DNA from: a virus
Virus record (IMG/VR): IMGVR_UViG_3300009285_002757
Coordinates: 1-47,010 of that record
DNA: 47,010 nucleotides
Reading direction: 5' to 3' (one strand)
In this document: piece by piece, positions 4,499-47,010 of the stretch
Position numbering within the stretch: position 1 is the first letter of the stretch
Layout of the letters: the number at the start of each line of letters is the position of its first letter
Program-made: the position numbers and the translations under genes
Notes under the pieces: generated by a model
Seen by the model: the letters and a program-made list of their open reading frames with translations, nothing else
Told to the model about the DNA's origin: nothing
Database searches by the model: none

Positions 4499-4809
4499 AA
4501 ACCAAAACCAGGAAAAAGGTGACAGTAAAACCACCTAAAGTAATTGCCAGACTGTGGTGGTTCCTTGAGCACTTAGCCAATGGCAGCATACTACGGCTGA
4601 AAACTCGTGGCTGGATTTATATGGAACACACCAATGAAGCGGAATTGGAACAGGAATACCGCCACTTGATTGACAGACGAGTAGGTCGCAGGCCGGAGTT
4701 CCGGCCATATCAAATTGTCATTGAATGGCTGGTAATCAAAGAGGAGCCGGAAGTGCTGGCACCAAATAAAAGGGAGGTAAAGGCAAAACGTAAAGCAAAG
4801 AGAAAGTAA
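4495..4809 (+). CDS. Basic hypothetical protein, 104 aa
   Basis: Strongly basic at both ends (MKTKTRKKVTVK and a C-terminal run of KAKRKAKRK). The central part contains a winged-helix-like pattern (LEHLANGSILRLK) followed by a strand with aromatic residues. The basic tails suggest nucleic-acid binding, but that is inference only. It starts inside the stop of the preceding gene. A copy of the CTGGCACCAAA motif lies in its coding sequence at 4756-4766. Confidence 0.7.
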   Translation: MKTKTRKKVTVKPPKVIARLWWFLEHLANGSILRLKTRGWIYMEHTNEAELEQEYRHLIDRRVGRRPEFRPYQIVIEWLVIKEEPEVLAPNKREVKAKRKAKRK

Positions 4810-4846
4810 CGCAATAAAACCAATCTTAACAACGAAAGGAATTACC

Positions 4847-5257
4847 ATGAGTGCATTATACCAAGAACTTGCAAGTGCGGTTGGAGCCTACCACCGTTGC
4901 GTGGAATCAGGAAACGCAGAGTGGGAAAGCAATCACAATGAAGCCATTCACAAACTGGAGTTAGAATTGCCTAGCGGCAGTGGTTTCGACAGTGGCACTA
5001 AAGTAGCCTTGTATGACTCCACAGAAGAAAAGCTGGTACTACAAACTTGCTTTCACCACATGAATGAAAATGGCATGTACGCTGGTTGGACAGATCACAC
5101 CGTCATTGTGACAGCCAGTTTGGTTTTTGGCATCAAGCTGAGGATCACTGGAAGGAACCGCAACGAAATCAAGCATTATATCCACGAGGTCTTTGAAACC
5201 GCCCTTCTGGAAACCTTCAAGGAAAGCAAAGCGGAAACAAAACCAACACAGGGGTAA
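4847..5257 (+). CDS. Conserved phage protein of unknown function, 136 aa
   Basis: The central segment (LPSGSGFDSGT, then HMNENGMYAGWTDHTV, then LRITGRNRNEIKHYI) matches from memory a widespread phage/plasmid family of unknown function whose members keep the LPSGSGFD, GWT-H and GRxRNxIKxYI elements. About 136 residues is normal for it. It has a good AAGGAATTACC leader. No catalytic residue set is evident. It may be a small cytoplasmic accessory protein. Confidence 0.8.
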   Translation: MSALYQELASAVGAYHRCVESGNAEWESNHNEAIHKLELELPSGSGFDSGTKVALYDSTEEKLVLQTCFHHMNENGMYAGWTDHTVIVTASLVFGIKLRITGRNRNEIKHYIHEVFETALLETFKESKAETKPTQG

Positions 5258-5263
5258 CCTTCC

Positions 5264-5884
5264 ATGCAAAAGTTTCGACGGCGAAAGAGTCTGTTGCGCC
5301 GTCGCCCTTACTTGAATGGAAGGTGGCATAAAGTTTATGCAAAAAAAGGGCGACGCGAGTTTGAAAGATTCGATCTGGTTCTGTGGCTGCCGCAGGATTT
5401 GACAGCAACAATCCTGGAAAAGACACCAAGTATTTCCGGCTTTTCCTGTTACCAGATCAAAGCTGCGCCAACCGGCGCAATCTTTCCAACCTATGGCAAT
5501 GAATTGCTGCTACTACAACACCAACCACTGCAAAGGAAACGAAGGAAACAACACCATGATAAAAATCACGGCAACATACGCACCACTACGGCGACTGCAA
5601 TTCCTGGCGCAAGAGGACACCACAATACAGGAATTGGCGCAAGTCCTTCAGTCGAAAGGAAAAGTCAGCTACGTGCACATCAGCCGGATGCCGCCGACAG
5701 CCCAAGAAATAAACCGGGCAAAGGAAAAGGGACTGGTAATAGAAGGCGGAAAGCTGATACCAAGAAAAGATCGGTGGTCGCCAAAAGATTGGGAACTGCT
5801 AACCGCTTGGGACAAGGCTCTGCAAGAAAACTTACGAATGGAAACAATCAAGTAGCAATCTTGTCCAAGAAACCTCCCCGTTGA
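5264..5884 (+). CDS. Uncertain basic ORF overlapping the next gene
   Basis: An open frame of 206 codons starting MQKFRRRKSL. The first 90 or so residues have reasonable composition (basic N-terminus, then a hydrophobic stretch FDLVLWLPQDL). From about residue 98 it runs out of frame across the whole gene at 5556 and turns into low-complexity Arg/Lys/Gly/Thr. Either the N-terminal part is real and the tail is fortuitous, or a frameshift has removed the natural stop. The ribosome site (GGGGTAA) is weak. Confidence 0.35.
   Translation: MQKFRRRKSLLRRRPYLNGRWHKVYAKKGRREFERFDLVLWLPQDLTATILEKTPSISGFSCYQIKAAPTGAIFPTYGNELLLLQHQPLQRKRRKQHHDKNHGNIRTTTATAIPGARGHHNTGIGASPSVERKSQLRAHQPDAADSPRNKPGKGKGTGNRRRKADTKKRSVVAKRLGTANRLGQGSARKLTNGNNQVAILSKKPPR
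5556..5855 (+). CDS. Hypothetical protein, 99 aa
   Basis: Begins MIKITATYAPLRRL, with GAAGGAAACAACACC before the ATG. Clean alpha/beta composition with a helical C-terminus; it is the more credible of the two overlapping frames here. No known domain recognised. It is the last gene before the structured non-coding block at 5881-6012. Confidence 0.7.
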   Translation: MIKITATYAPLRRLQFLAQEDTTIQELAQVLQSKGKVSYVHISRMPPTAQEINRAKEKGLVIEGGKLIPRKDRWSPKDWELLTAWDKALQENLRMETIK

Positions 5885-5939
5885 AAGGGCGCTGGAGCGA
5901 AGCGACAGGCCCTTTCAACTGCTGGAGCGAAGCGACAGC
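5881..5939. other. Two hairpins with identical GCGAAGC caps
   Basis: Hairpin 1: TTGAAAGGGC (5881-5890) pairs perfectly with GCCCTTTCAA (5909-5918) and, after one bulged G, CTG pairs with CAG. Hairpin 2: GCTG (5921-5924) pairs with CAGC (5936-5939). Both stems carry the same cap, GA-GCGAAGC-GA, in which facing GA steps can form tandem sheared G.A pairs and GCGAAGC is the known ultra-stable DNA mini-hairpin. The 17-base apex CTGGAGCGAAGCGACAG is identical in both. No T-run follows, so this is not an ordinary terminator. Confidence 0.75.
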
Positions 5940-5963
5940 AACGCTTTCCTACCTTGATTTCCC

Positions 5964-6012
5964 TATACGCGCACGCGCGTGCGGGGGTGAGGGGGGTGAA
6001 GGGGGGAGAGGG
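5964..6012. other. Z-DNA-prone palindrome next to G-quadruplex motif
   Basis: Positions 5964-5983 are 20 bases of strict pyrimidine/purine alternation containing the perfect 14-bp palindrome CGCACGCGCGTGCG (5970-5983). It runs into four G-tracts (5983-5987, 5991-5996, 6001-6006, 6010-6012) with loops TGA, TGAA and AGA, a textbook G-quadruplex pattern. An AT-rich CTTAAATTAAG stretch follows. With the hairpins just upstream this could be a replication origin, a fork/transcription pause site or a regulatory RNA; the sequence alone cannot tell. Confidence 0.7.
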
Positions 6013-6050
6013 ATTACCTTAAATTAAGATCATTTGAAAGGAATCAACCA

Positions 6051-6227
6051 ATGAGCCAACTAGCCGCAAAACGCCGCCGTCGTCAACACGCCCTGGGCTT
6101 TGCCCACCTTGCCAAGCCACAGCGTCCGAAATACAAACGCCGCAGTTTGCAGGCTGCTGTGCAGCATGAAGATTGGGTGCGTCGCCGGGAGCGTGACCGC
6201 GTTGCCCGTGGTGGTAGTAAAAAATAG
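6051..6227 (+). CDS. Small Arg-rich protein, 58 aa
   Basis: Starts MSQLAAKRRRRQ, with TTTGAAAGGA upstream of the ATG, a leader shared with genes at 6456, 14180 and 29167. Roughly a quarter of its residues are Arg, in clusters at positions 8-11, around 30 and 44-50, so it likely binds nucleic acid. It lies between the G-quadruplex element and the tRNA gene. No family recognised. Confidence 0.65.
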   Translation: MSQLAAKRRRRQHALGFAHLAKPQRPKYKRRSLQAAVQHEDWVRRRERDRVARGGSKK

Positions 6228-6234
6228 AAACGTT

Positions 6235-6312
6235 GCCCCTGTAGCTCAGATGGCAGAGCAGCACACTCGTAATGTGAAGGTCGGTGGGTTCGATACCTAT
6301 CCAGGGGCACCA
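6235..6312 (+). tRNA. tRNA-Thr (anticodon CGT) with encoded CCA
   Basis: The acceptor stem GCCCCTG (6235-6241) pairs with CAGGGGC (6302-6308), followed by A and an encoded CCA (6310-6312). The D-stem is GCTC/GAGC, and the anticodon arm has the loop CTCGTAA, so it reads ACG (Thr). The overall sequence resembles bacterial tRNA-Thr(CGU). Oddity: with a standard 7-base T-loop (TTCGATA), the T-arm has six base pairs (GGTGGG/CCTATC) instead of five, two bases longer than the usual bacterial gene. Confidence 0.9.
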
Positions 6313-6327
6313 ACTAACTTGAAGATA

Positions 6328-6402
6328 AGGCCCCAGGGGCCTCGAATGGCCAAAGTGCGTGTAGGACACAGGGGTTGGGCTGAAAATGGCGTGGCGGGCC
6401 TG
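6328..6402 (+). repeat. Structured repeat, copy A (inverted copy at 37433-37486)
   Basis: Contains the palindrome AGGCCCC-A-GGGGCCT (6328-6342), a GGCC...GGCC mini-stem (6338-6351) and a 40-base core (6363-6402). The core matches the reverse complement of 37433-37472 at 39 of 40 positions. Copy A has 11 extra bases between mini-stem and core. It lies just downstream of the tRNA gene. Not coding in any supported frame. Confidence 0.85.
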
Positions 6403-6455
6403 TATTCAAGCCGAATCGGCATAAATTGCAGCAACTTTTGAAAGGAAATTTGATC

Positions 6456-6680
6456 ATGGCAACAAAATCTAGAACCAAAGTAAAGAAAGCGGCAAGAACT
6501 GAAATCAAGGCACAAGTCTGCCTGTTCTACCGCACCAGGAAATCTAAAGCGGAACAAGGTATCGCCATCAATGAAGTGGATATCATCATTGACATGGATG
6601 GCAAGCCACTAAAGAAAAAGCCGTGGGATTACCTAATGCAGCCGTACTTGGGTTGTTTTATTTATGAGGAGCCGAAATGA
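6456..6680 (+). CDS. Hypothetical protein, 74 aa
   Basis: Start chosen at ATGGCAACAAAATC because TTTTGAAAGGAAAT lies at the right distance; an in-frame ATG 30 bases upstream lies before that site and is unlikely. Basic N-terminus (KSRTKVKKAARTEIK), then a compact strand-rich part. It overlaps the next gene by an ATGA junction. Function unknown. Confidence 0.7.
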   Translation: MATKSRTKVKKAARTEIKAQVCLFYRTRKSKAEQGIAINEVDIIIDMDGKPLKKKPWDYLMQPYLGCFIYEEPK

Positions 6681-7270
6681 GCATGACAAAACAGCAGGTG
6701 CATGAAATTGCGGAACGTGCCTACAAGAAGTTCCTGAAAGAAGGATCGGATGTCAAAAATGTGACCTGGGGTGAATTTGTCGTCCGGGAGACTGAAACCT
6801 TTCTGGAGAAGGAATTTATTGTCCTGACTGATGACCGGGATGACTACAAAGCCACGGCAGCACAGAACCTGGCACTGCTGGATCAAGCACGAGCGGACCT
6901 TGCTGAATGGCAGATGGTCACAGCACACTTAACGCCGAACGCGGCTGCTAAAGGTATCGAGCGCCTGTATGACAAATGGAAAGTTGCAGAGCGCTCTCTC
7001 GATACGCTGAAAAAGCCAGGTGCGGTAGCAGATGCAACAGTTAGTCCCTTTGGCAGCATCAGCAAGGACAGTACCGCTATCCGGGCACGCTTCCAGACGA
7101 AGGGATCGAATCAAATCGAGGTCTTTTATAATCACAGCACCGGGTTGCTGATTGTGTCCTTGGTGGCCAAAAGCGGAAGAGGCGGTAATGAGATCGTCCG
7201 CAAAATGCTGGACACAGAAACAGAACTCCGCTTGCTGGCGCATACAGAGAAGAAAGGAAAGAAAGTATGA
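6677..7270 (+). CDS. Hypothetical protein, 197 aa
   Basis: N-terminal half helical and charged (about 1-115), possibly a short coiled coil around 55-110; a Gly/Ser/Ala linker follows, then a strand-rich C-terminal domain (about 135-190) with IEVFYNH and LLIVSLVAKSGRGG. ATGA overlaps on both sides place it in one operon with the ligase gene. No known family recognised. Confidence 0.7.
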   Translation: MSMTKQQVHEIAERAYKKFLKEGSDVKNVTWGEFVVRETETFLEKEFIVLTDDRDDYKATAAQNLALLDQARADLAEWQMVTAHLTPNAAAKGIERLYDKWKVAERSLDTLKKPGAVADATVSPFGSISKDSTAIRARFQTKGSNQIEVFYNHSTGLLIVSLVAKSGRGGNEIVRKMLDTETELRLLAHTEKKGKKV

Positions 7271-8151
7271 GCAACCTTCGTCCTATGTTGGCTGCGGAGG
7301 CCATACTTGGCCAGATTACATACCCTAAACTCGTTTCCCCAAAGCTGAACGGGGTCAGGGGCCTTGTCATCAATGGTGTCCTTATGGCTCGGAGCCTGAA
7401 GAAGATTCCAAACCAGTATTGTCAATATTTATTCAGTCGTGAGAGGTTGACTGGATTTGATGGTGAATTAGTTGTCGGCCCTTTTAATGCGGAGGAGGTT
7501 TTCACAGAATCCACTTCGGGAGTGATGTCGCAAGAAGGCACCCCTGATGTCTCTTTTTGGGTATTTGACTTTTTTATGGAACCTAACATGAGATTGGTGG
7601 ACCGTATTAAAGCACTTAAAGCGGCCTACCACAGTGCTTTGCAAGCAAATGTGGTCTTGGTCCCCTACAAACTGATCCATTCGGATACGGAACTGAAAGC
7701 GTTTGACAAATGGGCGCAAGCAACCGGGTACGAGGGGACGGTACTGCGTGATCCGAACGCCAACTACAAGTTTGGCCGGTCCACGGAAAAGGAACAGGGC
7801 TTTCTCCGTTACGTGGAATGGCTGACCAGTGAAGCAGTAATCCTCCGTATTGATGAAAGGATGCATAATGCCAATCCGCAAAAGCAGAACGAATTGGGGT
7901 ATGCTAAGCGGTCCTCACATAAGGACAATAAGATACCTATGGGCGTGGCTGGCAGTATGCTGGTCCGGGACTTGAAAACCAAAGTGGAATTCAATGTCAC
8001 TATTGGTGGTGATGAATTACAGGCCGACTTCTGGAAGAACCGGAAAGGCTATCCTGGCAAGATCATCCGCTACAAATTCCGTGCCCCGGTGAAGGGTCTG
8101 ACTCCAAGATTTCCGATCTTGGAAGGTTTCCGTAGTAAGTTGGATAGGTAG
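7267..8151 (+). CDS. ATP-dependent DNA ligase (phage type)
   Basis: Seals nicks in duplex DNA through an enzyme-adenylate, joining Okazaki fragments during phage replication. The 294-aa size fits the minimal phage ligases: nucleotidyltransferase domain plus OB fold. Motif I is S-PKLNGVRG with the expected AMP-accepting Lys26; motif III is FDGELV (64-69), motif IV EGTVLR (156-161), and a motif V-like Lys-rich region with an OB fold follows. Motif I reads KLNG where most ligases have KxDG, an Asp-to-Asn change worth noting. It starts within the stop of the previous gene. Confidence 0.9.
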   Translation: MSNLRPMLAAEAILGQITYPKLVSPKLNGVRGLVINGVLMARSLKKIPNQYCQYLFSRERLTGFDGELVVGPFNAEEVFTESTSGVMSQEGTPDVSFWVFDFFMEPNMRLVDRIKALKAAYHSALQANVVLVPYKLIHSDTELKAFDKWAQATGYEGTVLRDPNANYKFGRSTEKEQGFLRYVEWLTSEAVILRIDERMHNANPQKQNELGYAKRSSHKDNKIPMGVAGSMLVRDLKTKVEFNVTIGGDELQADFWKNRKGYPGKIIRYKFRAPVKGLTPRFPILEGFRSKLDR

Positions 8152-21213: not shown

Positions 21214-21253
21214 AAGTGGGGACCAAGCATCTTTTGGTCCCCACTTCTTTTCT
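21214..21253 (+). terminator. Strong intrinsic terminator
   Basis: Perfect 13-bp stem AAGTGGGGACCAA (21214-21226) with TTGGTCCCCACTT (21234-21246), 7-base loop, followed by CTTTTCT. The A-rich 5' side means it could also work on the other strand, but no minus-strand genes are seen. Confidence 0.9.
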
Positions 21254-21693: not shown

Positions 21694-22773
21694 ATGAAAG
21701 TCAATTCTTCGGAACTGAAAATCCTGCTAGAACTGCTAGCTCCCTGCCTGGCATCCAGCAACTTCCTGCCAATACTTAGCATGGTCTGCTTTGACACGAA
21801 AGGCGTGTATGCCTTCAACGATCTTGTTGGCACAGACTTCCCATGGGAACACGGTCTACCTCCTGTGGCTGTCGATGGCAAAGCTCTATTAAGCTTTCTG
21901 TCCAAATTGAAAGATCAGGAACTAACACTTGACAGTACCACTTCCGGCAAATTGAAAATTACCGGAAAAGGTATAGAAGCTTCCCTCCCCACCATGGGGC
22001 CGGATGATTTCATCTTCAAGCGCCCTGCTGCCAAAGGGCTTGCAGCAACCATATCTGGTGTTAATGTCCTACAGCGTTTGGCGGAAGCCATTGATGTAGC
22101 AGCAACCTCCTCGGTATCTTCGGTGTATAAGAACGTAACCCTTGGTACACAGAAGGGAAGTAGCCTGTTTGCTTACGCTACGGATGGCCCCGCTTTAACC
22201 CATGCCAGAATTGGTTCCTTGAATGAAAAATTGGATCAGGAGCGCACCTGGATTGTGCCAAAATTGGCTATGGAACAAATTATTGCGGCAGGGAAAGCAG
22301 GGAACGATCCTATTGCAATAAACCTTTCCCTTGCGGATGACGCTTTGGTTATGGACAATAAGGACACTGTGGTATATAGCAAGATACTACAGGGAAATGC
22401 ACCTGATTTTGTCAAGGCTGTATCGGAAACGCCCGTTTGTACCATAGCAGATTGGGCCAAGGATGATCTGCTTACTGCCTTGGAAACAGCGGAGGTAATC
22501 TGTGACTCCTTTCTTAGCACCTGTCATGTTGGCATTGAAAAACAGACTGTAACCATACATGCCAGGGATGGCAAAGGGGAATTCAAAACGACCATAAAAG
22601 TACCTGTTGATCCGCCTGACACCAACTTTCAGTTCTCCATCAATCCTGCTCAGGTTATCCGAGCATTCAAATTCAAGGAAATTGCTGGCCCACTTGAGAT
22701 TACTAATAGGTACCTTGCCTTTGGCACGAAGGCTGAATTTTTGTATGCGGTAACCTTCAGCCGCAAAACCTGA
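21694..22773 (+). CDS. DNA polymerase sliding clamp, DnaN-like
   Basis: 359 aa, close to the length of bacterial beta clamps, with the three-domain repeat pattern of strands and helices (domains at about 1-115, 120-240, 245-359). Begins MKVNSSELKILLELLAPC and contains a typical PDxF-like GNAPDFVKAV segment in domain 2. It encircles DNA and tethers the polymerase at 23480; the matching loader is at 27567. Being bacterial in type, it would be expected to bind short QLxLF-like peptides, which is relevant to the recurrent tag found here. Ribosome site AAAAGGAATACC. Confidence 0.82.
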   Translation: MKVNSSELKILLELLAPCLASSNFLPILSMVCFDTKGVYAFNDLVGTDFPWEHGLPPVAVDGKALLSFLSKLKDQELTLDSTTSGKLKITGKGIEASLPTMGPDDFIFKRPAAKGLAATISGVNVLQRLAEAIDVAATSSVSSVYKNVTLGTQKGSSLFAYATDGPALTHARIGSLNEKLDQERTWIVPKLAMEQIIAAGKAGNDPIAINLSLADDALVMDNKDTVVYSKILQGNAPDFVKAVSETPVCTIADWAKDDLLTALETAEVICDSFLSTCHVGIEKQTVTIHARDGKGEFKTTIKVPVDPPDTNFQFSINPAQVIRAFKFKEIAGPLEITNRYLAFGTKAEFLYAVTFSRKT

Positions 22774-22916
22774 TGCCACTTAAATTCAAAAAGGTACCGT
22801 GGAAACGAAAAGAGGTAATTGGGGATGCTGTCCTGTATCTGGGGGATTGCCTCGAAATACTGCCGACGCTGCCGAAGGTGGATGCGGTGATTACTGACCC
22901 CAAATATGGCATTGGA
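22773..22916 (+). repeat. 5' methyltransferase repeat, copy 1 (copy 2 at 25968-26111)
   Basis: The first 50 bases of the two methyltransferase genes differ at one position, and the encoded 48 residues at three. Together with the 3' pair (23289-23479 and 26484-26674) these direct repeats bracket the polymerase gene. Confidence 0.85.
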
Positions 22917-23480
22917 TTTAAGTATGAAAACGACACTGATACTTTGGAGGATTGGTGTGTATTGATGAATGCTGCCGTACCACTTTGCAAAGCCATTGCA
23001 CCCTTCGTGATTATGCCTAGTTGTGCAATTAAACGCATTGAGTGGTGGTACGCAAATCATAAACCCGAATGGCTTGTGGCTTGGCATAAAGGAAGCCCTG
23101 GTCACATGGCCACTATTGGATTTAACGATTGGGAACCTCATGTGTGTTGGGGTAGACCAACACACCCAATGCACGATCATTTTTCTACTCCCTGTGGATT
23201 CGAGGAAAACGGCCATCCTTGCCCAAAGCCAATCAGCTATTCAATATGGTTAGTTGAGCGTGGTGCAGTGGTAGGACAGACGGTTTGCGACCCCTTCATG
23301 GGCAGTGGCACAACTGGCGTCGCCTGCATGAACCTTGGCCGAAAGTTCATCGGCATTGAAATCGAGCCCAAATACTTTGATATTGCTTGTGAACGCATCA
23401 GAAAAGCTGCTGAAGCACCACCTGATTTCTTTTTACAACAGAAACCAAAACCTATAAAACTTTCATTTTGGAAAAAGTAA
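22773..23480 (+). CDS. DNA methyltransferase paralogue 1 (DPKY motif)
   Basis: 235-aa beta-class N6-adenine/N4-cytosine methyltransferase fold: motif IV first (TDPKYG, 43-46) and SAM-binding motif I late (DPFMGSGTTG, 173-182). The catalytic DPPY is altered to DPKY, so activity is doubtful. Its first 48 and last 63 residues match the gene at 25968 at 45 and 58 positions, while the target-recognition centre is unrelated. It begins with a basic tag (MPLKFKKVPWKRK) and ends with KLSFWKK. TGATG overlap with the clamp gene. Confidence 0.85.
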   Translation: MPLKFKKVPWKRKEVIGDAVLYLGDCLEILPTLPKVDAVITDPKYGIGFKYENDTDTLEDWCVLMNAAVPLCKAIAPFVIMPSCAIKRIEWWYANHKPEWLVAWHKGSPGHMATIGFNDWEPHVCWGRPTHPMHDHFSTPCGFEENGHPCPKPISYSIWLVERGAVVGQTVCDPFMGSGTTGVACMNLGRKFIGIEIEPKYFDIACERIRKAAEAPPDFFLQQKPKPIKLSFWKK

Positions 23481-25978
23481 TGTCCTTCTCACAATACACA
23501 CCCTTTTTCCGGGTGCAGCCGGAAAGCAAGAAACAGCTAAGCCTGCCACTGGAAAGCATCTCTAAACTAGGGTGTAATGCCTGCACCCTGAATAAAATCA
23601 CACTGATCCACCCAAAAATGGATGCCACAGGTGATACCGACCCCCTGTTCTACTTTTTTGCGGAAGCACCAGGTTCCACTGAAGATGAACTTGGGGAACA
23701 GCTTATTGGTGAGTCTGGACAGATGATTCGTACTCGAATACCCTCAAAATGGAAAAAAAGAATACGTTGGAATAACACCGCAAACTGCCGTCCTCCATTG
23801 AATCGTGATCCCTCTCCACTGGAACTGGCCTGTTGCCGTCCCCGAATGGAAAAGGATATCATGGAGGCGAAGCCCGCCGTCGTTGTTGGCTTTGGCCGTT
23901 TCGCGCTGCAATGGGTGACTGGTGAAACCACCATGCACTTGTGGCGTGGCCGCAGGCTGGTACAACAACTGCATGGACACCCTTTCTGGTTCTATCCTAT
24001 TACTCACCCATCAGCTATCCTCCATTCTGGAGGATACCACACCAACAATCTTGATCTGCCGGTATTTGCCAATGATTTAAAACGAGTATTCCAAGAAGTG
24101 GAAGAATTGGATGACCCTGTAGTAATAACACCTGAACAGATGCAGAAAAACATTCGCTGTCTTAGTGGTAATGCAAAAGACTGGCCCGATATAATCAAGG
24201 ATTTCTGCCGCAAGAACAAGAAAGGCATTGGCTATGATATCGAGACCAACAACTTGCGCCCTTACCCGAATGAAGCGGCGATCCTGTCTGTTGCGTTGGC
24301 CACGACTGATAATGGTATTACCTTCCCAATTGCACACCCGGAGGCACGCCTTAAACCTGAAACACAGATGGCATTGCTTGCGGCAGTCCGGGATGAATTA
24401 CCAGGGATAGACTGGGTTGCTGCACACAATGCAGCCTTTGAACAGGAATGGGGTCTGAAATTCCTTGGCATGGAATCCACCAAGGCAACGAAATGGAAAG
24501 ATACCCAGGCGCAGGCGTTCACTTTGGATGAACGGCAAAAGATGCATAGCCTTGATACCATTTCTTTTATCCACTTGGGCTTGCGAATAAAGGAATTGCA
24601 TGATGTGGATGTGGAGCATCTTGACCAAGAACCTCTAGTTAAAGTATTACCATATAATGCTGGTGATAGCCGCGCCTGTGCTTTTCTTTACCCCATTCTT
24701 GCCGCAGAAATTGAACATCAAGGAATGGTTGGTATTAGTGATATGCATCAGCGACGATCTCTGACTATGGCAAGACTGAAGTATCGTGGAGTGGTTCCAG
24801 ACATTGTTGAAGCCAAGCGTCTGGATAAAGAGGTAGAGAATAAGGTCAACCTGGTTTTGAATGATATTGCTGAACACACAAAAGGGCATATCCGCAGACA
24901 TGGCAGGTTCAATCCCAACACGGCAGCGGATGTAAAGCGATGGTTCCTTGAGGAAATGCACCAAGACCTGCCAAGTACCGGCGAGGAATATTTATCACTG
25001 TCACCACACCCATTCGCTCAAGCTGTTCTTGATTACCGGACACTGACAAAGCTTCGTAGCACCTATCTAGCCAAAATCATTAGTGGTGAGCATATCTGGC
25101 CGGATGGACGCTTGCATAGCCTTTACTCACAACTTCGTGCCCGTAGTGGCCGTCTAGCTTCCAGCGAACCAAACCTGCAAAATATACCAAAGAGAGGCCA
25201 CAAGGAGATTCGGGGCGTAATAGGCGTCCCAAAAGGGTGTGTCCTGGCGTCATTTGACTATGGACAGATTGAAGCACGTGTTATTGCCATGGCTAGTAAG
25301 GATAAGTTCCTATGCAAAGCCTTGTGGGATGGGTATGATATTCACGCACACTGGACGGAACGCTTGGCCAAGGCGGATAAGAGGTGGGGGAAAGGTGCTG
25401 GCGATAAAAAGGTTTTCAAGCTATTGCGGGATCATGTCAAGAATGAATGGACCTTCCCTGCATTCTTTGGAGCGCAACTTGGTGCAGTTGCCAGTTATCT
25501 TGGCATTGATGATCGGACCCTGGAACCTCTATACATAGAATTTTGGGAACAGTTTGCTGGTGTAAAGCAGTGGCAGGAAAAAGTCTTATCATTTTACAAC
25601 ACCAACCTTTATGTAGAGATGCTGACTGGCAGGCGGCGGCATGGTCCATTGACTGCAAACCAGTTATTTAATACCCCCATTCAAGGACCGGCGTCTGATA
25701 TTGTGGTGGATGCCATGGAACGGTTGGACGATCTGTCAGATGAGCATGAGAAGCCTTGGTTAGCCCCAGTTATGAATGTGCATGATGACTTGGACTTTTA
25801 TCTGCCGGAAGAAACCAGTAAGCTTGAGGATGCCTGCGAACTAATAGGAAAAACTATGTGTATGACACCGTTTGACTTCGTTAATGTACCAATAACGGTG
25901 GAACTGGCAATTAGCGACAAATCCTTTGCTAAGGTAGAGGCCATTCATACCTTCAAATCAACAGATTATGCCACTTAA
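23480..25978 (+). CDS. Family A DNA polymerase with N-terminal UDG-like domain
   Basis: 832 aa from the TAATG overlap at 23480. Domain 1 (about 25-190) resembles family 4/5 uracil-DNA glycosylases: Cys32/Cys35, AEAPG (61-65) with TED, Cys103, Cys118/119 (a likely FeS set) and ITHPSAIL (174-181). Domain 2 (about 245-415) is a 3'-5' exonuclease: YDIET (Asp253, Glu255), AHNAAF and YNAGD (Asp396). Domain 3 is the polymerase: SGRLASSEPNLQNIP, motif A DYGQIE (Asp593), motif B R650...K654 with FFGA, motif C VHDD (767-770). All catalytic acidic residues are present. KQLSLPLES near residue 18 resembles a bacterial clamp-binding peptide. Probably the main replicase. Confidence 0.93.
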   Translation: MSFSQYTPFFRVQPESKKQLSLPLESISKLGCNACTLNKITLIHPKMDATGDTDPLFYFFAEAPGSTEDELGEQLIGESGQMIRTRIPSKWKKRIRWNNTANCRPPLNRDPSPLELACCRPRMEKDIMEAKPAVVVGFGRFALQWVTGETTMHLWRGRRLVQQLHGHPFWFYPITHPSAILHSGGYHTNNLDLPVFANDLKRVFQEVEELDDPVVITPEQMQKNIRCLSGNAKDWPDIIKDFCRKNKKGIGYDIETNNLRPYPNEAAILSVALATTDNGITFPIAHPEARLKPETQMALLAAVRDELPGIDWVAAHNAAFEQEWGLKFLGMESTKATKWKDTQAQAFTLDERQKMHSLDTISFIHLGLRIKELHDVDVEHLDQEPLVKVLPYNAGDSRACAFLYPILAAEIEHQGMVGISDMHQRRSLTMARLKYRGVVPDIVEAKRLDKEVENKVNLVLNDIAEHTKGHIRRHGRFNPNTAADVKRWFLEEMHQDLPSTGEEYLSLSPHPFAQAVLDYRTLTKLRSTYLAKIISGEHIWPDGRLHSLYSQLRARSGRLASSEPNLQNIPKRGHKEIRGVIGVPKGCVLASFDYGQIEARVIAMASKDKFLCKALWDGYDIHAHWTERLAKADKRWGKGAGDKKVFKLLRDHVKNEWTFPAFFGAQLGAVASYLGIDDRTLEPLYIEFWEQFAGVKQWQEKVLSFYNTNLYVEMLTGRRRHGPLTANQLFNTPIQGPASDIVVDAMERLDDLSDEHEKPWLAPVMNVHDDLDFYLPEETSKLEDACELIGKTMCMTPFDFVNVPITVELAISDKSFAKVEAIHTFKSTDYAT

Positions 25979-26696
25979 ATTCAAAAAGGTACCGTGGAAA
26001 CGGAAAGAGGTAATTGGTGATGCTACGCTGTACTTGGGTGATTGTCTGGAAATATTACCGACGCTGCCGAAGGTGGACGCTCTCATTACCGACCCGCCGT
26101 ATGGAATTGGACGCGACGGTCAGGCGCGCAGCACGGGCGGGCACGGTGGGCACAAGGAATACGAATTCATGGGATGGGATGCCGTGCGCCCAAGTGCCGA
26201 TTGTTTCCGTCTAATGCTATCTGCCGCTGATTATTATATTGTGTGGGGAGGGCAATACTTCGCGGATTTGCTTCCCGTCCATTCGCAATGGTTGGTATGG
26301 GATAAAGGACAGCGTATTAATCAATCCGACGGTGAACTGGCGTGGACTTCCCGCGATGGTGCTTTGCGAATCTATACACAAAACCGCGTTGCACTGATGC
26401 AGGATGGCGCGGAGCATCCAACGCAAAAGCCGATTGTGCTAATGCAGTGGTGTCTCGGTTTCGTTGAGTCCGAAAATATTCTCGACCCCTTCATGGGTAG
26501 TGGCACAACTGGTGTAGCCTGCATAAGCCTCGGCAGGAAATTCATTGGTATTGAAATAGAACCCAAATATTTCGACATCGCCTGTGAGCGCATCAGAAAA
26601 GCTGCTATGGCACCCCCTGATTTCTTTTTACAACAGAAACCAAAACCCACAAAACTTTCTTTTTGGAAAAATGGTGAAACTAAACCTAAAAAATAA
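25968..26696 (+). CDS. DNA methyltransferase paralogue 2 (DPPY motif)
   Basis: 242-aa beta-class adenine/cytosine amino-methyltransferase with intact DPPYG (43-47) and DPFMGSGTTG (173-182). Same N- and C-terminal shells as the gene at 22773, but the centre (about 49-170) is different and GC-richer, with WGGQYF and EHPTQKP elements typical of active enzymes. It likely methylates a specific site to protect phage DNA. The start overlaps the polymerase end by 11 bases; tags MPLKFKK and KLSFWKN at the ends. Confidence 0.88.
   Translation: MPLKFKKVPWKRKEVIGDATLYLGDCLEILPTLPKVDALITDPPYGIGRDGQARSTGGHGGHKEYEFMGWDAVRPSADCFRLMLSAADYYIVWGGQYFADLLPVHSQWLVWDKGQRINQSDGELAWTSRDGALRIYTQNRVALMQDGAEHPTQKPIVLMQWCLGFVESENILDPFMGSGTTGVACISLGRKFIGIEIEPKYFDIACERIRKAAMAPPDFFLQQKPKPTKLSFWKNGETKPKK
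26484..26674 (+). repeat. 3' methyltransferase repeat, copy 2 (copy 1 at 23289-23479)
   Basis: Codes for the SAM-binding motif, the C-terminal helices and the KLSFWK tag shared by both methyltransferases (58 of 63 residues identical). It forms the second half of the direct-repeat bracket around the polymerase gene. Confidence 0.8.
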
Positions 26697-30446: not shown

Positions 30447-30490
30447 GGGGAGGGTAGGTGCCACGCCCACACCTACCCTCCCCGCCTTTT
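30447..30490 (+). terminator. Strong intrinsic terminator after SSB
   Basis: Perfect 14-bp stem GGGGAGGGTAGGTG (30447-30460) with CACCTACCCTCCCC (30470-30483), 9-base loop, then GCCTTTTCT. It isolates the SSB transcript from the RecA gene, or gives differential expression of the two. Confidence 0.9.
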
Positions 30491-37432: not shown

Positions 37433-37486
37433 CAGGCCCGCCACGCCATTTTCAGCCCGACCCCTGTGTCCTGGCCGTTCGAGGCC
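37433..37486 (-). repeat. Structured repeat, copy B (inverted relative to 6328-6402)
   Basis: On the minus strand this reads like copy A: GGCC...GGCC mini-stem (37473-37486) followed by the 40-base core (37433-37472), with 39 of 40 core bases the same. It fills the gap between the sbcD-like and sbcC-like genes, just upstream of the sbcC GTG start. Confidence 0.85.
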
Positions 37487-46920: not shown

Positions 46921-47010
46921 AAGTCCCATCAAAGATAGAAATTGATTCTCTTGTTTGCCATGTGGCAAACAGAACCAACTTCCTGGATTGGTTTTCTATC
47001 ACGGGGGGGG
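46917..47010 (+). CDS. Partial gene cut by window end
   Basis: ATG at 46917 (ATGA overlap) opens a frame to the window end: MKVPSKIEIDSLVCHV then ANRTNFLDWF. 31 residues are too few for a family. The window ends in eight consecutive G, so the last bases may be unreliable. Confidence 0.5.
   Translation, partial: MKVPSKIEIDSLVCHVANRTNFLDWFSITGG

What the first reader, a model, noticed from the sequence alone, without database searches (positions are those of the whole stretch)
5881..6012. Composite DNA-structure element: capped hairpins, Z-DNA palindrome and G-quadruplex
Within 132 bases there are two hairpins with the same GA-GCGAAGC-GA cap, a 20-base alternating pyrimidine/purine run with a perfect 14-bp palindrome, a four-tract G-quadruplex motif, then AT-rich DNA. 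Each is rare; together they look like an origin, a pause site or a packaging/termination signal. It also sits next to the only tRNA gene and the structured repeat.
Basis: partly seen in the sequence, partly recalled or inferred. Interest (0 to 1): 0.72.

Follow-up and report, generated by a model that had tools for sequence, protein, structure and literature searches.

The report
Three-hairpin intergenic RNA in a phage
Between two genes of an uncultured phage lies a 133-base stretch that, when copied into RNA, is predicted to fold into three very stable back-to-back hairpins, so it is more likely a signal that protects or controls the phage's messenger RNA than a DNA origin with quadruplex and Z-DNA parts.

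Summary
On the + (coding) strand the stretch folds as RNA into three adjacent hairpins (-75.5 kcal/mol, z -8.15). It has the lowest energy and z of 724 tiles covering both strands of the window. H1 (5880-5919) and H2 (5920-5940) have different stems but the same 18-nt tip. The "Z-DNA palindrome" is the tip of H3 (5942-6012) and the "G-quadruplex" its 3' arm, paired to a pyrimidine 5' arm through 21 Watson-Crick and 5 G-U pairs. H3 is therefore strong only as sense RNA: -40.1 against -19.6 kcal/mol antisense; RNA z -5.7, DNA z -2.5. The palindrome and the G4 count are expected by chance; the alternating run is rare (P 0.02). The nearest relative lacks the capped pair. One unrelated viral contig (L160) has a similar layout just after a perfect sigma-70 promoter, upstream of dnaC/dnaB/primase genes. 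Best reading: an intercistronic or leader RNA that stabilises or delimits transcripts, analogous to the CUUCGG hairpins of T4. This is predicted, not shown. Attenuation, antitermination and DNA-level roles are not excluded.

The parts
5556..5855 (+). Upstream ORF (99 aa, no family); a longer ORF in another frame, 5264-5884, overlaps it and reaches the first bases of H1
   Evidence: ORF list; no PHROG or Pfam match. Choice of frame is inference.
5880..5919 (+). Hairpin H1: 11-bp outer stem, bulged G, CTG/CAG, GA/GA, GC-GAA-GC tip; the outer arms alone form a perfect 22-bp palindrome
   Evidence: RNA fold -24.9 kcal/mol, z -6.35; DNA z -4.77
5891..5908 (+). First copy of the shared 18-nt tip block GCTGGAGCGAAGCGACAG
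   Evidence: Direct repeat D18
5920..5940 (+). Hairpin H2: 5-bp stem TGCTG/CAGCA with the same tip
   Evidence: RNA fold -8.9 kcal/mol, z -3.19
5921..5938 (+). Second copy of the shared 18-nt tip block
   Evidence: Direct repeat D18
5942..6012 (+). Hairpin H3: pyrimidine-rich 5' arm (5942-5964) paired to G-rich 3' arm (5990-6012), tip 5968-5985 made by the alternating palindrome; 21 Watson-Crick and 5 G-U pairs
   Evidence: RNA -40.1 kcal/mol, z -5.71; pair list and antisense fold -19.6; DNA z -2.53
6012..6045 (+). Weak hairpin that partly covers the Shine-Dalgarno AAAGGA of the next ORF
   Evidence: -4.8 kcal/mol; SD bases partly unpaired with and without the element
6051..6227 (+). 58-aa very basic ORF (MSQLAAKRRRRQ...VRRRERDRVARGGSKK) directly downstream
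   Evidence: ORF with SD TTTGAAAGGA; no PHROG, Pfam or phage homologue
6235..6312 (+). tRNA-Thr(CGT), only tRNA found in the window
   Evidence: ARAGORN, Rfam RF00005 52 bits

Best explanation
The element is a structured stretch of a sense-strand phage transcript, lying between two small + strand ORFs. The nascent RNA folds into three adjacent hairpins. Two present an identical, very compact GA-GCGAAGC-GA tip on different stems. The third is a long hairpin made by a pyrimidine-rich 5' arm and a G-rich 3' arm. Most likely it works as a physical boundary in the polycistronic mRNA: it blocks 3'-to-5' decay of the upstream message and gives the downstream segment (58-aa ORF, tRNA-Thr, then genes up to the DNA ligase) a protected 5' end after processing. 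The identical tips may also be contacted by a protein. Shown by computation: the fold, its strand preference and its extremity. Inferred: that it is transcribed, and what it does.
For: RNA z -8.15 over 5880-6012, first of 724 tiles in energy and z. H3 depends on G-U pairs that exist only in the sense transcript: -40.1 against -19.6 kcal/mol antisense, RNA z -5.71 against DNA z -2.53. Position: 25 nt after the stop of ORF 5556-5855 and 39 nt before a start codon with a Shine-Dalgarno sequence. The same tip on two different stems suggests the tip is the kept part; in L415 two neighbouring capped hairpins have stems that differ by compensatory changes. L160 has a comparable capped array just after a 12/12 sigma-70 promoter and before an ORF. 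Precedent: CUUCGG hairpins are common in intergenic regions of phages, and one at the 5' end stabilises T4 gene 32 mRNA (PMC8948821).
Against: No transcript data. The site is not alignable in the nearest relative, so there is no covariation for H1-H3 themselves. The cap elsewhere is not biased to the sense strand (9 sense, 23 antisense), so the cap alone does not argue for RNA. d(GCGAAGC) is known for its stability as DNA (PMC4686876). A longer fold uses flanking CCTCCCC and re-pairs part of H3. Stabiliser is one of several possible RNA roles and nothing here separates them.
Confidence: 0.42

Rival explanations
1. A transcription-control leader: the hairpins act on RNA polymerase as a pause, attenuator or processive antiterminator, as HK022 put RNA does, possibly with the basic 58-aa product as partner, as N is for boxB.
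For: Two adjacent stem-loops near the head of a gene block; put RNAs are about 70 nt with two stem-loops and act without a dedicated protein (PMC9378689). In L160 the array starts right after a consensus promoter ahead of dnaC/dnaB/primase genes. The next ORF encodes an Arg-rich 58-aa protein.
Against: No consensus sigma-70 promoter in 4800-7400. No T-run after any of the three hairpins. The Arg-rich likeness to N is an eyeball lead, with no homologue found. No alignment to put RNA was made.
Confidence: 0.2
2. A DNA-level signal: supercoil-extruded or single-stranded hairpins used as an origin, a primase or protein landing site, or an N4-type hairpin promoter.
For: GC-GAA-GC with flanking GA/GA is a very stable DNA hairpin (PMC4686876). 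H1 is also significant as DNA (z -4.77). The gene block is a replication module. N4 early promoters are small GC-rich hairpins (PMC4496689).
Against: H3 is weak as DNA and needs G-U pairs. No skew change. For N4: its loop bases are read from PMC4496689 as 5'-GGA-3' with a contacted central -11G; here the centre is A and GA/GA mismatches separate the heptamer from the stem. No origin-type repeats were seen.
Confidence: 0.15
3. Translational control of the 58-aa ORF: the 3' arm of H1 (CCTTTCAA) or the hairpin at 6012-6045 can mask its Shine-Dalgarno sequence (TTGAAAGG), perhaps with the basic product binding the identical tips.
For: TGAAAGG serves as SD of several genes here; CCTTTCAA of H1 is complementary to the SD at 6034-6041, duplex -10.2 kcal/mol.
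Against: H1 itself (-24.9 kcal/mol) outcompetes that duplex. The predicted openness of the SD changes little with the element.
Confidence: 0.12
4. No selected function: a palindrome-type repeat or template-switch product, like the many cap-bearing repeats of bacterial genomes.
For: Double caps within about 40 nt are found in at least 119 stretches of genome contigs and 120 of viral contigs, both scans truncated. In the viral set 17.6% of caps carry 4 or more flanking bp against 0.6% of random 11-mers of the same DNA. H1 looks like a perfect palindrome with the cap block at its centre.
Against: Does not explain H3 or its sense-strand G-U pairing. The cap is not enriched in related phages (4 in 1.67 Mb). 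Pairs of hairpins with the same tip in 2 Mb of related viral DNA lie, on inspection, in tandem or low-complexity repeats.
Confidence: 0.11

Closest known systems
CUUCGG-type extra-stable intergenic hairpins of T4 and other phages (Tuerk et al. 1988, as cited in PMC8948821)
   Same: A fixed, unusually stable tip on varying stems, in intergenic regions of phage transcripts
   Different: Tip is GA-GCGAAGC-GA and not UUCG; two such hairpins side by side plus a third long hairpin; no functional data
HK022 put RNA (PMC9378689)
   Same: Adjacent stem-loops of nascent phage RNA, possibly near the head of a gene block
   Different: No promoter identified upstream, a third long hairpin, no aligned sequence likeness tested, host polymerase unknown
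N4 virion RNA polymerase promoters (PMC4496689)
   Same: Small GC-rich DNA hairpin with a three-base loop of GNA type
   Different: Centre of the loop A and not G, mismatches next to the heptamer, virion polymerase gene not in the fragment
GCGAAGC mini-hairpin DNA (Hirao et al., in PMC4686876)
   Same: Contains exactly GCGAAGC at both tips
   Different: Here inside longer stems and, in this reading, in RNA
L160 leader, IMGVR_UViG_3300032288_003711 (this work)
   Same: GAGCGAAGCGA caps on different stems, followed by a long hairpin with alternating tip and G-rich 3' arm, just before an ORF; fold -75.0 kcal/mol
   Different: Three caps, the first probably overlapping the transcription start; stems unrelated; the minimum fold nests the caps instead of giving three separate hairpins; unrelated phage

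Membership tests
Intramolecular G-quadruplex (functional) | Four G-tracts with short loops | tested here: met
   5983-6012; but such motifs are expected about once per window by chance
Intramolecular G-quadruplex (functional) | Quadruplex favoured over base pairing of the same strand | tested here: not met
   ViennaRNA with the quadruplex option gives the same minimum without it (RNA only)
Intrinsic (rho-independent) terminator | GC-rich hairpin followed by a U-run on the same strand | tested here: not met
   No + strand terminator-like site in the element; sequence after H1, H2 and H3 has no T-run
HK022 put antiterminator | About 70-nt RNA with two stem-loops downstream of an early promoter | tested here: inconclusive
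   Two adjacent stem-loops but no sigma-70 promoter match within 4800-7400; the host sigma factor is unknown
HK022 put antiterminator | Suppresses termination through the RNA polymerase beta' zinc-binding domain | not testable with these tools
   Needs experiment
N4 vRNAP hairpin promoter | Three-base loop with central -11G on a stem contiguous with the heptamer | tested here: not met
   Centre is A and the bases next to the heptamer do not pair at either cap
Bidirectional replication origin | GC-skew or coding-strand switch | tested here: not met
   Skew positive on both sides; genes on both sides on +. Only the 47-kb fragment was available
Known RNA family (Rfam 15) | Covariance-model match | tested here: not met
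   Only the tRNA matches at gathering score; the best other match in the region is far below its gathering score
CUUCGG-type stabilising hairpin | Raises mRNA stability in vivo | not testable with these tools
   Needs RNA half-life measurement

The most novel reading that the evidence does not exclude
A so far undescribed class of phage leader RNA, shared by convergence or descent between unrelated phages (this window and L160): an array of hairpins with identical GA-GCGAAGC-GA tips on unrelated stems followed by a long hairpin with a G-rich 3' arm, placed just upstream of ORFs in replication regions and acting on RNA polymerase or binding a protein through the invariant tips.
Probability: 0.13. 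Interest if true: 0.7.

Novelty: new variant of a known kind. Interest (0 to 1): 0.4.

Why it matters
Phage intergenic hairpins with a fixed ultra-stable loop are known, in the literature read here, for the UUCG loop. It also corrects a likely misreading: alternating CG runs and G-tracts in a sequence can be the tip and arm of one RNA hairpin and not Z-DNA plus a quadruplex.

Tried and rejected
Megablast of 1-25000 against phage genomes: no match. Single-protein scans for relatives with ligase and MoxR: none. L373 and L402 share gene 4847-5257, but I saw no such element downstream on reading them. Exact 19-mer of H2 in viral contigs: none; 17-mer pair in genomes: none. BLAST of the element and of the L160 leader against phages gave only chance-level hits. 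A longer fold closes the element into a multibranch junction with flanking CCTCCCC; the plain three-hairpin fold is within 0.3 kcal/mol over nearly the same stretch, and both share H1 and H2. Sense-strand bias of the cap in other viruses: absent, if anything reversed. A first tiling run timed out. A CsrA-sponge idea (GGA at the cap) was set aside because the cap is also common in mycobacteria and other groups; it was not tested directly.

Full report
What the window is. The window is a whole 47,010-base IMG/VR virus record, read as a linear fragment. Its recognisable genes are on the + strand and form a replication module: topoisomerase IB, ATP-dependent DNA ligase, MoxR ATPase, VWA protein, DnaB-like helicase, SNF2 helicase, toprim primase, sliding clamp (weak), DNA polymerase I, clamp loader, RecA, a metallophosphatase and AAA_23 pair that looks like SbcD/SbcC, and ThyX. 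No structural gene was recognised, so the genome is probably larger. No close relative is in the phage collection.

Observation. All motifs are at the stated place. Taken one by one they are not all rare. In Markov simulations a palindrome of 14 bp or more is expected in a window of this size (P 0.94), and two G4 motifs compare with 1.05 expected; the 20-base alternating run is unusual (P 0.02). The exact 18-nt block at two hairpin tips 30 nt apart is the most specific single feature.

What it is. Folding the + strand as RNA gives three adjacent hairpins covering 5880-6012, -75.5 kcal/mol against -47.3 (sd 3.5) for shuffles, z -8.15, with the centroid equal to the minimum. Among 724 tiles over both strands it is first in both energy and z (those z values rest on 12 shuffles per tile). 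H1 is the perfect palindrome GTTGAAAGGGC|GCCCTTTCAAC with the 18-nt block at its centre. H2 carries the same block on another stem. H3 joins the pyrimidine-rich arm CTTTCCTACCTTGATTTCCC to the G-rich arm; the 'Z-DNA' palindrome is its tip and the 'G4' its 3' arm. Of 26 pairs, five are G-U with the U always in the 5' arm, so the antisense RNA of the same DNA reaches only -19.6 kcal/mol and the DNA fold is modest (z -2.53). This strand asymmetry is the main argument that the sense transcript is the functional molecule. The quadruplex option does not alter the minimum.

The cap elsewhere. No control pattern was scanned, so enrichment over chance is inferred from the pattern length. In the viral set 17.6% of distinct caps carry 4 or more flanking base pairs against 0.6% of random 11-mers of the same DNA, and 4.9% against 0.06% for 6 or more. 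In the genome set most are tandem repeats (many mycobacterial) with short stems. So the cap is a recurrent hairpin tip and not private to this phage. It is not enriched in related phages (4 in 1.67 Mb) and not biased to sense strands. In L415 two neighbouring hairpins keep the cap while their stems differ by compensatory changes (ACAACCTC/GAGGTTGT and ACAACTCC/GGAGTTGT).

A possible parallel. L160 (IMGVR_UViG_3300032288_003711) has three caps on different stems and then a long hairpin with a 28-nt alternating run at its tip and a G-rich 3' arm, -75.0 kcal/mol. A 12-of-12 sigma-70 promoter ends 2 nt before the first cap, and dnaC-like, dnaB-like and primase genes follow. Its three caps are the only exact ones in the record. 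An alternating run plus a G-rich motif within 200 nt downstream is expected at 0.02 of 122 random positions in the same loci. Cautions: the comparison was made after seeing the hit; that genome shows other CGCG runs nearby; the minimum fold of L160 nests the caps instead of giving three separate hairpins, and its z is weaker (-4.94, or -3.97 from the inferred transcript start).

Conservation. The nearest relative, L327, shares MoxR (66%), VWA (59%), ligase (43%) and others, but none of the ORFs next to the element, no tRNA in the 18 kb held and only one mismatched cap in its 51.9-kb record.

Mechanism. I favour an mRNA boundary or stabiliser between cistrons, by analogy with CUUCGG hairpins in phages (PMC8948821). 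Transcription-level control of the put type (PMC9378689) is the main rival; the window lacks a consensus promoter close by. DNA-level roles rest on the known stability of d(GCGAAGC) (PMC4686876) but do not explain H3, and the N4 promoter criterion tested is not met. Translational control of the 58-aa basic ORF is possible through SD-like and anti-SD words but is energetically disfavoured.

Verdict. A real and extreme RNA-structure element, misread as a set of DNA structures. Its function is predicted only. Interest is moderate.

Noticed in passing
6363-6402 (+) and 37433-37472 (-): 40-nt repeat, 98% identical, in two intergenic regions on opposite strands (AGGACACAGGGGTTGGGCTGAAAATGGCGTGGCGGGCCTG); not unusually folded and not found in viral contigs.
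   Followed up: partly
22764-23480 and 25959-26696: Two methyltransferase-like ORFs with near-identical ends (83-86%) flank the DNA polymerase gene, 3195 nt apart: a duplication with a diverged middle.
   Followed up: no
2366-2599: 18-nt tandem repeat inside ORF 2279-2791 (AGDGF/AGNWF repeats); relative L327 has a pentapeptide-like repeat protein at 6671-7237.
   Followed up: no
1243-2220: Topoisomerase IB (Pfam Topoisom_I plus bacterial N domain) without any match in the phage collection.
   Followed up: partly
21214-21246 and 30447-30483: The two longest perfect stems of the window (13-14 bp) sit just upstream of genes and are both followed shortly by CTTTTCT and then the start region: possibly a repeated leader design.
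   Followed up: no
47003-47010: Contig ends in G8 after TATCAC; possibly an assembly or sequencing artefact.
   Followed up: no
5264-5884 and 5556-5855: Two overlapping open frames directly upstream of the element; which one is coding is not settled.
   Followed up: no
L415:270-372: Two capped hairpins with compensatory stem differences, z -7.06, near the start of a contig carrying ORFs that look like an HNH nuclease and a small terminase by eye: possibly a packaging-site region.
   Followed up: partly
L208-L326: GGAGCGAAGCGAC recurs in tandem arrays of mycobacteria (CGGCGGGCAGGAGCGAAGCGACCCGGGGA units) and in GTCATTGCGAGGAGCGAAGCGACGAAGCAATCC palindromic repeats of several other bacteria.
   Followed up: partly
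L327:1301-1430: Very structured stretch (+, -47.8 kcal/mol, z -8.05 on 15 shuffles) after a + strand ORF and before a - strand ORF in the nearest relative.
   Followed up: no
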